Origin: Lachnospiraceae bacterium
GTDB lineage: Bacteria; Bacillota; Clostridia; Lachnospirales; Lachnospiraceae
Direction of reading: 5' to 3'
Assembly (NCBI GenBank): GCA_014799405.1
Contig: JAAVIA010000002.1
Coordinates: 1 to 42,855 of the forward strand
Length of the DNA: 42,855 nucleotides
Positions 8,588-38,518 of the stretch are shown piece after piece (positions within the stretch are counted from its first letter, which is position 1; every line of letters starts with the position of its first letter). The notes beneath the pieces are model-generated. The model worked only from the letters and a program-made list of their open reading frames with translations. It did not search any database and was not told the origin of the DNA. Both the position numbers and the translations under genes were made by a program.

Positions 8588-8945
8588 CAAAAAAATAAAC
8601 TTACATCTCTAATCTTTAGAGACGCAAGTTTTGCGCGGTACCACTCTAATTCATACATTAAATGTATGCACTTATCAGGATACGGACTCAGTCATATATC
8701 CTCCTGCTATAACGGTCAGGCTCCGTCCAAGTCTACTGATACCATCAGGTACCGTTCAACCGGCTGCTCCAAGGCGAGTTCGCATATATCACAACATCAC
8801 GAATGTCATAACATACAATCCACCAAATACTGTCTCACACCACCCGACAGCTCTCTGAAATCCGGTAAATTCCTACTATTCCTTTTCATCGCTTTTCCAT
8901 ATTTACAGGAAGCTTGCTTCCATTTAAGAAACTTTAACATATTTT
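8588..8945 (-). promoter_or_regulatory. T-box riboswitch (leucine) leader of leuA
   Basis: On minus strand: GATGAAAAGGAATAGTAG, AGAGAGC...GGTGTGAGAC, specifier region GAACTCGCCTTGGAG (CTC at 8776-8778), T-box AGAGTGGTACCGCG (8634-8647), then terminator hairpin AACTTGCGTCTCTA/TAGAGATGTAAGTT and T tract. Confidence 0.93.
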
Positions 8946-25898: not shown

Positions 25899-25962
25899 AA
25901 AAATTGTAATAAATTGCATATAAATGTTATAAGCTGTTTATAATAGAAAGCAAAAGCACGAG

Positions 25963-26006
25963 TCGCTTTGTTTATGTACAACCGGTACATGACAAAGCGA
26001 TTTTTA
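25963..26006 (+). terminator. Terminator-like hairpin in leader of first vanY-like gene
   Basis: TCGCTTTGTTTATGTAC AACC GTACATGACAAAGCGA TTTTTATT; TATAAT upstream. Confidence 0.8.
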
Positions 26007-26063
26007 TTGCCATAGGCTATATGCCACAGGTCTAAGATTCTTTCTAAAAAGGAGACAACAGCT

Positions 26064-26927
26064 ATGAACAACAATAAGAGACGAAAAAAACAATACCGCA
26101 TTTTAAGGCAGCAACTTATTATTTTGTGCTTTACAGCCGCCGTTTTATTGACCTTGATTATAAACCTGTCTTGGAAGTCAGATACCTCTGATAAAGCGTA
26201 TACCGCTGCATATTCTGAAAACAACAACAGCATAGATACAGACAACAGCACAGAAACTGATAACAGGATTATATCGGAAAACCAAATTGTTCCCGCAAGC
26301 TCCCAAAATAATAACTTGACGCTTTCACAGGAAGCAACAGAAATATATAAGCGAAACAAAAGCCTGCTTATACTTGTAAATACCGAAAATCCTCTGCCTG
26401 ATAGTTACGAATTCAGCAGGCACACCTTAAACAGCGGATTTGTAATAGATGAACAGGCGTATATTGATTTTTACAGCTTTACCAAGGCATGTAATGATGC
26501 AGGTTTCCACTACAATATTATTTCCGCATACAGAGACAGGGAAACCCAACAGGGTATTATTAACAGAAATGTGAGCGAGTTTATGCAAAAAGGCTTAAGT
26601 GAAGCAGAGGCAATGGAAAAAACCTACGAAACCGTTCAGCGTGTAGGATGCAGCGAGCATGAGACAGGACTTGCCATTGATCTTTCCGATGAGAAGATTT
26701 TTTCTCTTACGGAGGATTTAGAGACAAATCCTACCGTGAAATGGTTTATGGAAAACTGCTGCGACTACGGCTTTATTTTAAGATATCCAAAGGAAAAGGT
26801 TGATGTTACGGGTATAGATTATGAGCCCTGGCATTTCAGGTATGTAGGTCAGGAGGCCGCCAAATTTATGAGCGAGCATAATCTTACCCTTGAAGAATTT
26901 TACCTGCTCCTGCTTTCAACTTCGTAG
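26064..26927 (+). CDS. D-Ala-D-Ala carboxypeptidase, M15B / VanY family, membrane-anchored
   Basis: SEHETGLAIDLS and YEPWHFRYVG metal/active-site motifs; N-terminal signal anchor. Confidence 0.92.
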   Translation: MNNNKRRKKQYRILRQQLIILCFTAAVLLTLIINLSWKSDTSDKAYTAAYSENNNSIDTDNSTETDNRIISENQIVPASSQNNNLTLSQEATEIYKRNKSLLILVNTENPLPDSYEFSRHTLNSGFVIDEQAYIDFYSFTKACNDAGFHYNIISAYRDRETQQGIINRNVSEFMQKGLSEAEAMEKTYETVQRVGCSEHETGLAIDLSDEKIFSLTEDLETNPTVKWFMENCCDYGFILRYPKEKVDVTGIDYEPWHFRYVGQEAAKFMSEHNLTLEEFYLLLLSTS

Positions 26928-26990
26928 GAAAATCGTAAGAATTTGAATATAAAAATGTAAGCTGTTTATAATAGAAAGCAAAAACACTAG

Positions 26991-27034
26991 TCGCTTTGTT
27001 TATGTACAATAGGTACATGACAAAGCGATTTTTA
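26991..27034 (+). terminator. Terminator-like hairpin in leader of second vanY-like gene
   Basis: TCGCTTTGTTTATGTAC AATAG GTACATGACAAAGCGA TTTTTATT; near-copy of the hairpin at 25963. Confidence 0.8.
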
Positions 27035-27098
27035 TTGTCACAGGCTAAAATATTATATGCCTCAAAGCTAAGATTATTTTTAAAAGGAGAGAACCGTT

Positions 27099-27875
27099 AT
27101 GAGCAACATTAAGAGAAGAAAAAACCAATACCGTATTTTAATGCAGGTACTTATTATTTTGTGTTTTGTCATTGCAGTTTCTTTTATTCTTCTTATAAAC
27201 CTGTTTGGGAAATCAGATAAGAATTCATCATATACCTCTGTATTTTCCGAAAGCAGTAATGATGTGGGCACAAACGAAATTATTTTGGACGCCCAAGCTT
27301 CCACCGAAAACAAACAAAATGATGATTTTCAAAATAATGATTGGTACTTAATTTTAGTAAACCGTGACCATCCACTGCCTGACAACTACACTATAAACAC
27401 GGTAACCCTTTCAAACGGACAAATAGTGGATGCACGCATGTATCCTTATCTACAGGAAATGTTTGACGATATGAGGGCAGATGGCATTTATCCCGAAGTT
27501 GTTTCGGGCTGGCGCACATACGAAAAGCAACAGCAGTTAATGGACGAAAAAATACAGGAATATGTTTCGGAGGGATATTCATATGAGGATGCTAAAGCAA
27601 AGGCGGAGGAATGGGTTGCAGTTCCGGGCACAAGCGAACATCAGCTTGGACTTGCAGTTGATATAAATGCAGACGGTGTCAACTCATACGGATACGAGGT
27701 TTACGACTGGCTTTTGGAAAACGCCTGGAAATACGGATTTGTAAAACGCTATCCTGAAGATAAGACGGAAATCACAGGCATAATAAACGAGCCTTGGCAC
27801 TACCGCTATGTAGGCTATGATGCCGCAAAGGAAATGACGGAGAAAAACCTCTGCCTTGAGGAATATGTAAAGTAA
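27099..27875 (+). CDS. D-Ala-D-Ala carboxypeptidase, M15B / VanY family, membrane-anchored
   Basis: GTSEHQLGLAVDINAD and NEPWHYRYVG motifs; N-terminal signal anchor similar to upstream paralog. Confidence 0.93.
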   Translation: MSNIKRRKNQYRILMQVLIILCFVIAVSFILLINLFGKSDKNSSYTSVFSESSNDVGTNEIILDAQASTENKQNDDFQNNDWYLILVNRDHPLPDNYTINTVTLSNGQIVDARMYPYLQEMFDDMRADGIYPEVVSGWRTYEKQQQLMDEKIQEYVSEGYSYEDAKAKAEEWVAVPGTSEHQLGLAVDINADGVNSYGYEVYDWLLENAWKYGFVKRYPEDKTEITGIINEPWHYRYVGYDAAKEMTEKNLCLEEYVK

Positions 27876-28334
27876 GAGGCTGTCGCACTAGGTCTGCATA
27901 CATTATAACACAAACATGTTTTTATTAGTCTTTGTAGGCACGAATTGCCCACACGATACAGCTATACTGTAAACTAAAAACCGTTTGAAGACGTCGGTAC
28001 TTGAGTTGGTGATTGGGATTGCCTGCATAGGTGGCTGAAAAACCCGCTCTCGCTCGTCTCCGCCGTAATGGTACTAAAAATTGCCGGCTTAAGATATCCT
28101 TATATAAAATCAGGATACTTTATGCCGGCAATTTAAGTACCAACGTCTTCAAACGGTTTTTCTGCCACCTATGCAGGCAATCCCAACCACCAACTCTTAG
28201 TACCGCTACGTCTGAATCGAACGAAAGTGAGTTTTTAGTTACAGTATACGCTGTATCTGTGGGCAACCCGTAAGTAACTAACAGATAAAAACATGTTTGT
28301 GTTATACGATATGCAGTCCTAGGCGACAGCCTCC
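27876..28334. repeat. Long imperfect palindrome filling a convergent intergenic gap
   Basis: GAGGCTGTCGCACTAGG...CCTAGGCGACAGCCTC ends; AACACAAACATGTTTTTA/TAAAAACATGTTTGTGTT; GGGATTGCCTGCATAGGTGGC/GCCACCTATGCAGGCAATCCC; apex AAATTGCCGGC/GCCGGCAATTT. Confidence 0.9.
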
Positions 28335-29954
28335 CTACAATCTCTCAAGCAGCCCTTCAAGTCCTTCTTCGTCATATATTTGCTTATAATACATAACCTC
28401 ATCCTTAATAAGCTCATCTATGACCTGCATTCCAAGGAGCTCCACCGGTGCCTTATCATCGGTCATAATATAGCTGCCTGGCTCATATGCCATAAGACAT
28501 CCCTCCAGCTTTTGTTCCATAAAATTCTTCAATTCACCCTGCAATGGATTATCCGATGATAACGCCTCCACCTCAGCGTAAAAGGTTTCCATCATAATCT
28601 TGTTATTTGAGGCAAAAAGCTGACGGTTTGTGGTGCCTCCCACATCAACAGTATAAACCTCATCAAACACCTGTGAAATGGTATCTGCAAGATGCTGATT
28701 TATATCACCCTCACTGTTCCCCCTCATATTCATATTTACAACCATAACTCCGTCAGGTGTAAGATGCTCCTTTACGAGGGTAAAAAATTCAACGGATGAC
28801 ATCTGAAAAGGGATTGTTATATCCTGATAAGCATCCACCATTATAACGTCATATTTCTCATCTATTGCATTTAAGTACGCCCTTCCATCATAGGTTGTAA
28901 CCTTCACATTCTCAGGCAGCTCAAAATATTCTCTTGCAAGCTTTGTTATTTTTTCATCTATCTCAACTCCTATACAGACAACATTATCAAAGTACCTGCT
29001 GCACTGGGTTGCATAGGTTCCCGTCCCCATACCAAGTATAAGAATATTCATGCCGTCCCTTTTTGACAGACCTGCCATAAGGGGCGCTGCCATGGCATAA
29101 TCATAATACATGCCCGTAAGTCTCTCCTCCTTGACATAAACAGACTGTACGCCGAAAAGAACATTTGTGGAAAGATATACCTTCTCATCATTTTCCCTAA
29201 CCTGAAGGTAGTTGTATATGGATTCTCCCTCATAGGTCAAATCCTTTTCCCAAAATGCAAAGCTGTCCGATGAACCAAAAATGCAGCTTATAATAAGAAT
29301 TACAACCGAGACGGCAGACTTAACCTTTCCCGTCCTACAGCTTACAAAATATATAATTCCAAGTAGCATAAGCACCCCTGCAAATATAAGAAATGTAATA
29401 GACGTTCCCACCGCAGGTATGGTTACAAATGTAGGCAGGAATGTTCCGATTATACTTCCTATCGTATTAAATGCCCCAAGGTTACCCACAACCTTTCCGC
29501 TTTCCTCAAGGCTTTCCACTGAATATTTTGCAAGCGATGGTGTGACCGTCCCAAGAAGAAAGAGCGGAAACACAAATATAACCATACAGGCAAAAAAAGC
29601 CGCCCATATGAGAAAGTTGTTATTAACTGTAAAAACAAGAATTGCCGAAACCCCCAGAATAATATATTTCCCCACAACAGGAATAAGCGCTATCCATACG
29701 GCTGCAATTAAAATTCTGCCGTAAAGCTTATCGGGATTTGGATTTTTGTCCGCACTTCTTCCACCGTATATATTGCCAAGCGCCATTGCAATCATTATTG
29801 TTCCAATAATGATTGTCCAAACGATTTGGGAGGAACTGAAATACGGGGCAAGAAGTCTGCTTGCTCCAAGCTCCACAGCCATTACGGACATTCCTGCAAA
29901 AAATTCCGTAAGGTACAAAAACATTTTACTTTTTAATATTCTTTTTTCACTCAT
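28335..29954 (-). CDS. Fused MFS-type membrane domain / spermidine synthase-like methyltransferase domain
   Basis: N-terminal multi-TM FFAGMSVMAVELGASRLLAPYFSSSQIVW; C-terminal ILILGMGTGTYATQCSRYF...YDVIMVDAYQDITIPFQMSSVEFFTLV; start set at MSEKRIL. Confidence 0.88.
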   Translation of the reverse strand: MSEKRILKSKMFLYLTEFFAGMSVMAVELGASRLLAPYFSSSQIVWTIIIGTIMIAMALGNIYGGRSADKNPNPDKLYGRILIAAVWIALIPVVGKYIILGVSAILVFTVNNNFLIWAAFFACMVIFVFPLFLLGTVTPSLAKYSVESLEESGKVVGNLGAFNTIGSIIGTFLPTFVTIPAVGTSITFLIFAGVLMLLGIIYFVSCRTGKVKSAVSVVILIISCIFGSSDSFAFWEKDLTYEGESIYNYLQVRENDEKVYLSTNVLFGVQSVYVKEERLTGMYYDYAMAAPLMAGLSKRDGMNILILGMGTGTYATQCSRYFDNVVCIGVEIDEKITKLAREYFELPENVKVTTYDGRAYLNAIDEKYDVIMVDAYQDITIPFQMSSVEFFTLVKEHLTPDGVMVVNMNMRGNSEGDINQHLADTISQVFDEVYTVDVGGTTNRQLFASNNKIMMETFYAEVEALSSDNPLQGELKNFMEQKLEGCLMAYEPGSYIMTDDKAPVELLGMQVIDELIKDEVMYYKQIYDEEGLEGLLERL

Positions 29955-30030
29955 TACATTCTTCCATCTCCATGTAAATTTTTGATTCACGTCAAAAACA
30001 AGCTTGACTTCATATGTGCTTTCCATAGTT

Positions 30031-33408: not shown

Positions 33409-33632
33409 CATATTTAGTCATGCGCAAAGCTCTACTTTTGCAGACATCCGTTGTACAATATAGGCAAATCACCGCAAGGCACGCTTTCGCTATGTGTCGC
33501 ACGTAACTGTACATAAGGTGCCAAAATACGGCACCTAAGTACAGACGGCTCCCCAATGCCTTGCTTGCGATATTGTCTATATTGTACAACTACATATCAG
33601 AAATAGTGCGTTTTGCTCATGTCTAGTATATA
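33409..33632. repeat. Imperfect intergenic palindrome
   Basis: Arms share TTGTACAATATAGRCAA...CAAGGCA with apex GGTGCC AAAATAC GGCACC (33517-33535). Confidence 0.8.
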
Positions 33633-33633
33633 T

Positions 33634-33695
33634 TAAAAACGGAGTTGCCACGCTAAGAATATTTATAATATAAATATTCTTAGTGCGACAGCCCC
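33634..33695 (-). terminator. Terminator hairpin downstream of ilvE
   Basis: Minus strand GGGGCTGTCGCACTAAGAATATTTATA...TATAAATATTCTTAGCGTGGCAACTCC GTTTTTAAT. Confidence 0.8.
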
Positions 33696-33710
33696 TTTAT
33701 AAATTCACTG

Positions 33711-36912: not shown

Positions 36913-37299
36913 ATTTCCTAAGCCTAACAACTATTGTAGTAATTAATCCCGCTAAAATCATAGCAGGTGTCACTACTAATGCCATAGCGTGTATTCCCAA
37001 CTTAGAAACTGTTTTGTTTTGAGATAGTTACTGTCATAATCTCGTTTTGTTGAACGATGCACCATTTTGGTTGGGACATTCAACGCATACTTCATCGTTT
37101 TGTCCCGAATGTCGATATTCATGGTACTCTCGATTAACCTCACAAAACCATATCCGCGACTAGCATGCACAGGGTTATCGTGAGCTTTTAGACATCGAAT
37201 AAACAAAATATCAGATATACTTAGATGGCATAGGATTGCGAGAAAATACAGAGAAGTGGTCGAATATGCAAAATTCACATCATTGGTCTCTAAATTCAA
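36913..37299 (-). pseudogene. Degraded ORFs: truncated membrane-protein C-terminus and possible transposase remnant
   Basis: Minus strand encodes HAMALVVTPAMILAGLITTIVVRLRKY* without an intact upstream gene, next to a 107-aa ORF (36976-37299) lacking a clear complete domain. Confidence 0.35.
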
Positions 37300-38233: not shown

Positions 38234-38518
38234 ATATCTCCTTTCCGAGTTTAGTAACAGACCATTGCGCCTGAACCATTATTTTTTGTCTTTCTGTTTG
38301 ACGTTATCAGTGTAGCATAAGAGGTTTTATTCGGTCAACATTTATTTGCAGCAGGATGTGAAATATGGTATTCTAAAATAAGATTTTATAATAATTTCAG
38401 AATGAATGGAGGAACCTATGTTGATTGATGCACCATTTTGGGTGGATTATTCAACCACCACATTTAGTATTAATCTTATCCTCTGAATCTAAACCAACAT
38501 CTCAAACATTACAATCCT

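What the first reader, a model, noticed from the sequence alone, without database searches (positions are those of the whole stretch)
27876..28334. 459-bp palindrome exactly spanning two convergent stop codons, with internal modules swapped between arms
The sequence begins at the base after the vanY-like stop codon and ends at the base before the opposing gene's stop codon. Arms pair at the outer ends, the core (GGGATTGCCTGCATAGGTGGC) and the apex (AAATTGCCGGC). Between these, arm 1 reads X-core-Y (X = CCGTTTGAAGACGTCGGTACTT, 27981-28002; Y = CCCGCTCTCGCTCGTCTCCGCCGTAATGGTACTA, 28043-28076). The reverse complement of arm 2 reads Y'-core-X' (Y' ~28197-28231, X' 28135-28156). X can therefore pair with X' and Y with Y' only in a register different from full nested folding, implying alternative structures. 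Y and Y' differ mainly by transitions. This is more than a simple terminator and could be a structured RNA, a MITE-like element, or a DNA cruciform/protein-binding site. Function is inference.
Basis: partly seen in the sequence, partly recalled or inferred. Interest (0 to 1): 0.82.

Follow-up and report, generated by a model that had tools for sequence, protein, structure and literature searches.

The report
Nested palindromic mobile element, conserved core
The 458-base mirror-image sequence between two genes is one of about 40 related copies in this gut bacterium. It looks like a small gene-less jumping element nested inside another, and each carries a folded core sequence that also recurs in roughly a third of sampled genera of the bacterial family Lachnospiraceae.

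Summary
Window 27876-28333 is a 458-bp imperfect palindrome (185 of 206 aligned arm positions identical; RNA fold -261 kcal/mol, z = -25), and its X/Y modules are arranged as described. It is not a one-off: about 40 places in the same genome hold a relative. The X/Y pairs are two copies of one conserved folded core (X:y), nested one inside the other and lying on opposite strands.

A covariance model of the core matches 117 of 329 Lachnospiraceae genomes (about one per genus). In a 350-genome phylum sample it matches 4 genomes, all in this family. No Rfam family matches credibly. The core covaries strongly (97.1% of cells paired; 22 of 24 pairs change on both sides), has a mini-hairpin with GNRA loops, and favours G-U over A-C (41:6). 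The outer arms do not (122:140).

Several core-bearing copies in other genera have the same ends and 10-12-bp target duplications as an autonomous IS1182-like transposon, so they are MITEs. The window's own subfamily has other ends and no target duplication; its orthologous sites are consistent with replacement of short stem-loops, as described for IS1272.

Best reading: a non-autonomous palindromic element nested in another. The core's role is unknown. The alternative-fold and stop-to-stop interpretations are not supported.

The parts
27876..28333 (.). whole palindrome: nested two-level element filling the space between two convergent genes
   Evidence: inverted repeats, fold, about 40 related places in the same genome
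27876..27891 (+). left outer end GAGGCTGTCGCACTAG, the end sequence shared by many long and short palindromes of the genus
28318..28333 (-). right outer end, partner of the left one (CCTAGGCGACAGCCTC on the + strand)
27961..28248 (+). outer copy of the conserved core (X ... y), carrying the inner element as its apex
   Evidence: covariance model R1, 79 bits
28026..28176 (-). inner copy of the conserved core, on the opposite strand
   Evidence: covariance model R1, 91.9 bits
27976..28002 (+). module X of the outer core (AAAAACCGTTTGAAGACGTCGGTACTT)
28043..28076 (+). module Y, strand complement of the inner core's y
28078..28134 (.). apical hairpin AAATTGCCGG...CCGGCAATTT
   Evidence: (I4)
33462..33578 (-). 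second, one-level element with the same core elsewhere in the window
   Evidence: covariance model R1, 52.4 bits
33632..33704 (.). 73-bp coreless palindrome with the same GGCTGTCGCACTAAG end
   Evidence: (I4)

Best explanation
The sequence is a non-autonomous mobile palindrome (a MITE in the broad sense) with a second palindrome of the same kind at its apex. Each level carries one copy of a conserved asymmetric folded core (X:y): a long helix with a 2-nt bulge and a side mini-hairpin, GC-GNRA-GC, on one strand. Shown: dispersed multicopy relatives, no coding capacity, presence/absence at orthologous intergenic sites, covariation of the core, and, for core-bearing relatives in other genera, the ends and 10-12-bp target duplications of an IS1182-like transposon. 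Inferred: copies spread by using an IS1182-type transposase in trans. The window's subfamily (GGCTGTCGCAC ends, no target duplication) would insert by replacing an existing stem-loop, such as a terminator or the apex of an older copy, which would build concentric shells. The X:y core is kept by selection on a folded single strand (RNA or ssDNA), probably for recognition by a protein; what that protein is remains unknown.
For: Copies: 40 places in G000 and relatives in the genus. Core: 117 of 329 family genomes, 4 of 350 in the phylum sample, all same family. Covariation: 97.1% of cells paired, 22 of 24 pairs with double changes, 0 of 500 shuffles. GNRA in 78 of 80 scored mini-hairpin loops; G-U:A-C 41:6 in the core against 122:140 in outer arms. 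Mobility: TIR TAGGYNNTTGCGAAAC with 10-12-bp direct repeats around core-bearing copies in several genomes; a 1.8-kb autonomous IS has the same TIR and a DUF772/IS1182-like transposase. One duplicated flank is single in the sister genome (TAAATATATAC, G015 v G001). Replacement: in G035 the apex hairpin between AAAT and ATTT is exchanged for a GGGGCTGTC...GACAGCCCC palindrome without duplication; the window site is a 26-28-nt hairpin in G001 and G015; an ordinary terminator stands at another site in G011. Precedent: IS1272 stem-loop replacement (PMC5678879).
Against: No autonomous IS with GGCTGTC ends was found, and the IS1182-like elements examined on plasmids do not carry that end, so the link of the window subfamily to IS1182 is by analogy. 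The transposases match the IS1182 model far below its cut-off (about 53-70 bits against 270). Some short hairpins may be deletion remnants rather than targets: G001 at element A keeps a piece of y, and the G015/G001 pair at element E also fits slippage deletion between CAGGC repeats. The autonomous IS copies lack the X:y core.
Confidence: 0.68

Rival explanations
1. Long bidirectional intrinsic terminator or mRNA 3'-end stabiliser that evolved in place between convergent genes.
For: Some copies and short palindromes of the genus are flanked by A-rich and T-rich tracts and sit after stop codons; the window copy fills a convergent gap.
Against: Across 80 copies the 5 nt after the arm are only 28% T; the window copy has no T-run; contexts are tandem 50, convergent 14, divergent 10; the family-wide conserved core is not needed for termination.
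Confidence: 0.12
2. REP/BIME or REPIN-type element mobilised by a RAYT (Y1 tyrosine transposase).
For: High-copy extragenic palindromes; some occur as inverted pairs at one locus.
Against: No Y1_Tnp in the window's own genome (98.6% complete) although it has about 40 places; across 329 genomes Y1_Tnp is not enriched with the core (58 of 117 v 128 of 212; odds 0.65, p = 0.06). Size and core do not fit 20-40-bp GTAG/CGTC-tagged REPs (PMC3733652).
Confidence: 0.04
3. Family-wide structured non-coding RNA gene or cis-regulatory RNA, with the palindromic arms secondary.
For: Covariation, GNRA loops and G-U tolerance of the core.
Against: No orientation bias relative to tandem genes (24 sense, 26 antisense); up to 339 motif matches in one genome; arms private to each copy; no Rfam match; no expression data here.
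Confidence: 0.12
4. Palindrome grown by replication template switching or inverted duplication of host flanks, not by transposition.
For: Each copy has its own near-perfect outermost arms; at element E the right arm is an inverted copy of the left flank.
Against: Shared ends across loci, TSDs and an autonomous partner for the TAGG type; dispersed similar copies. It may still act as a secondary arm-correcting process.
Confidence: 0.1

Closest known systems
IS1272 / IS1182-family stem-loop-replacing transposition (PMC5678879)
   Same: Palindromic element found where an inverted repeat was, no target duplication; the IS1182 family includes members that target palindromes, as cited there.
   Different: IS1272 is an autonomous IS with a transposase; here the elements are gene-less, nested and carry a conserved core. 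No autonomous partner with the window's ends was found.
Prokaryotic MITEs (review PMC10969869)
   Same: Short, non-coding, terminal inverted repeats, multicopy, intergenic; TAGG-ended copies have TSDs and an autonomous partner.
   Different: Almost the whole element is a palindrome, and the conserved part is the internal core rather than the ends, which differ between genera.
REP/BIME and REPIN elements (PMC3733652, PMC3116915)
   Same: Dispersed extragenic palindromes, sometimes in inverted pairs.
   Different: About 125-460 bp rather than 20-40 bp, no association with a RAYT gene, different core.
ssDNA hairpin recognition sites with extrahelical bases (integron attC, IS608 ends; recalled, not tested)
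   Same: Imperfect palindrome whose strand-specific unpaired bases are conserved.
   Different: No tyrosine recombinase or Y1 transposase link shown; no strand bias relative to genes.

Membership tests
MITE | short, no coding capacity, many dispersed copies | tested here: met
   40 places in G000; the only ORF over it is an 80-aa frame running through the palindrome
MITE | terminal inverted repeats shared with an autonomous transposon | tested here: inconclusive
   met for TAGGYNNTTGCGAAAC copies (L158, L174, L194, L341) with IS in L365 and L370; no autonomous partner found for the window's GGCTGTCGCAC ends
MITE | target-site duplication | tested here: inconclusive
   10-12 bp in the TAGG group; none above chance in 82 GGCTGTC-ended palindromes or across 80 copies scored without TIR anchoring
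IS1272-type inverted-repeat-replacing element | a pre-existing stem-loop is replaced, with no TSD | tested here: inconclusive
   G035 apex exchange and the window site fit, but direction (insertion or deletion) is not proven at every site
IS1182-family transposase partner | transposase matches the family model above its cut-off | tested here: not met
   NF033551 at 68-70 bits against a cut-off of 270 for the TAGG IS; PF05598 is met at 48 bits
REP/BIME-RAYT | RAYT (Y1_Tnp) in the genome | tested here: not met
   none in G000 or G027
intrinsic terminator | GC stem followed by a T-run | tested here: not met
   no T-run at the window copy; T not enriched after arms
Rfam family | score at or above a curated threshold | tested here: not met
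   no match over the element in the window; permissive searches gave only sub-threshold, implausible families
cis-regulatory RNA | fixed orientation relative to the regulated gene | tested here: not met
   24 sense, 26 antisense among tandem contexts

The most novel reading that the evidence does not exclude
The X:y core is an undescribed, Lachnospiraceae-wide functional nucleic-acid structure (RNA or ssDNA) that a transposase or host protein reads. Elements with unrelated ends in over a hundred genera keep it because it makes them mobile, or makes long palindromes tolerable to the cell. Nesting on opposite strands would then give each element one core in either direction.
Probability: 0.4. 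Interest if true: 0.82.

Novelty: new variant of a known kind. Interest (0 to 1): 0.62.

Why it matters
MITEs are normally defined by their ends; here the ends vary between genera and an internal, strand-specific, covarying structure is what is conserved. That predicts a protein which reads the core, and a testable link between IS1182-type stem-loop replacement and the nested palindromes that break assemblies of these gut genomes. The core model (R1) is a ready tool for annotating Lachnospiraceae intergenic regions.

Tried and rejected
Alignment A1 was discarded because I had typed in one sequence that does not exist; A2 and R1 use only fetched sequences. Alternative registers X:X' and Y:Y': about 60 kcal/mol worse. 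Rfam at permissive thresholds: nothing credible. RAYT/Y1 mobilisation: rejected for this genome. Targeting of terminators as a general rule: A/T tracts not enriched family-wide. Insertion into viruses: 0 exact matches of the y pattern in IMG/VR. DDE_Tnp_1_6 in the own genome: none; DUF772 was not searched there. Autonomous partner with GGCTGTC ends in viral contigs: only scattered single matches. TSD search without TIR anchoring: no excess. Close plasmid relatives of two MITE copies: none. The orthologous site of L219 in G747 lacks the element but is too diverged to show a footprint.

Full report
OBSERVATION. Window 27876-28333 is a near-complete palindrome between the stop codon of a VanY-like gene (27099-27875, PF02557) and that of a convergent gene with a spermidine-synthase domain (28335-30026, PF01564). 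Fold energy is -261 kcal/mol, z = -25 against shuffles; arm identity is 185 of 206 aligned positions. Pairing X with X' or Y with Y' costs about 60 kcal/mol compared with the nested fold, so I do not support alternative structures.

IT IS A FAMILY. BLAST of the element against its own genome gives 40 separate places (113 matches; my count of merged places); several contigs end inside copies. Among 99 relatives searched, 14 genomes match: 13 of the same genus and one of another genus of the family. Named records with the X motif are MAGs, mostly labelled Lachnospiraceae or Clostridium. Listing X and Y modules shows one-level (X-y), two-level (XYxy or YXyx) and three-level (XYXyxy) elements; where modules of both levels are present the levels alternate, and I saw no XXyy. 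Two-level copies may share one founder, so alternation is not a count of independent events.

THE CORE. In elements of other genera the outer arms and apex are unrelated in sequence, but X and y are recognisable. A covariance model R1 from 25 sequences matches 117 of 329 genomes of the family, with at most 10 candidates scored per genome, and 4 of 350 in a phylum-wide sample, all in the same family. One genome (G052) has 339 matches of the strict y pattern. On 81 distinct hits 97.1% of cells pair, 22 of 24 pairs show double changes, and no shuffle reaches the scores. The mini-hairpin on the y side has GNRA loops in 78 of 80 cases, and its 2-bp stem covaries. G-U outnumbers A-C 41 to 6 in the core but is 122 to 140 in the arms outside the model. 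Mild bias from the model is possible, since it was defined on that strand. I read this as selection on the folded X-to-y strand for the core, and symmetric DNA-palindrome evolution for the arms. RNA and ssDNA cannot be separated here. R1 finds both levels in the window: 27961-28248 on + and 28026-28176 on -. So the 'swapped modules' are two nested copies of one asymmetric core, one per strand.

CONTEXT. Of 74 copies with genes on both sides, none lies inside an ORF by a simple ORF caller; 50 are between tandem, 14 between convergent and 10 between divergent genes, and the core strand is sense in 24 and antisense in 26 tandem cases. The stop-to-stop fit of the window copy is therefore not a family rule, and a fixed cis-regulatory role is unlikely.

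MOBILITY. (a) Orthologous sites: where the window has 458 bp, G001 and G015 have 26-28-nt hairpins, and G035 has a one-level, partly deleted element with other arms before the same right-hand gene. Other sites show empty junctions, ordinary terminators, or partly deleted elements. (b) Ends and duplications: core-bearing copies in G052, G134 and G186, and a core-deleted copy in G015, lie between TAGGYNNTTGCGAAAC inverted repeats with exact 10-12-bp direct repeats; one in G011 has one mismatch. In G015 the repeat TAAATATATAC flanks the insert and is single in G001. IMG/VR contigs carry 1.8-kb elements with the same ends and a DUF772 transposase weakly matching IS1182; one (L410) has an 11-bp duplication visible. 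These IS copies lack the core. (c) GGCTGTCGCAC-ended palindromes, the window's type, show no duplication. In G035 the apex hairpin of a copy, between AAAT and ATTT, is exchanged for a GGGGCTGTC...GACAGCCCC palindrome. This matches the stem-loop-replacing transposition proposed for IS1272. No autonomous element with these ends was found.

ALTERNATIVES. Y1 transposases (RAYT) are absent from the window's genome and not enriched with the core. Terminators do not explain the core, and T-runs are not enriched. Template-switch arm correction probably adds to the near-perfect private arms, and central deletion clearly occurs (L316 keeps a remnant of y). For several sites I cannot tell insertion from deletion.

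VERDICT. The mobile, nested, palindromic nature is well supported. The IS1182 link is shown for the TAGG-ended copies (weak family score) and inferred for the window copy. The X:y core is a new, widespread, structured motif of unknown function.

Noticed in passing
window 33462-33578 (-) and 33632-33704: A second, one-level element with the same core (52 bits), followed by a coreless 73-bp palindrome with the GGCTGTCGCACTAAG end.
   Followed up: partly
window 25930-26927 and 26958-27875: Two tandem VanY-like genes (PF02557), each preceded by a 90-bp repeat (93% identical) that itself contains a hairpin; looks like a gene duplication.
   Followed up: no
L227, L228, L230 (G121), L239 (G111), L240 (G374), L260 (G334), L040 (G052): Pairs of core hairpins in inverted orientation at one locus, a BIME-like arrangement, with unrelated sequence between them.
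   Followed up: no
L112, L114, L116, L345: Another small palindrome (GTCCTGAGG...CCTCAGGAC) inserted inside X:y elements, including one copy within module y.
   Followed up: no
   Followed up: no
window 37048-37084 and 38419-38455: Two 37-nt palindromic repeats (84% identical) near the tRNA genes.
   Followed up: no
window 8615-8898 (-): T-box leader (RF00230, 103 bits).
   Followed up: no
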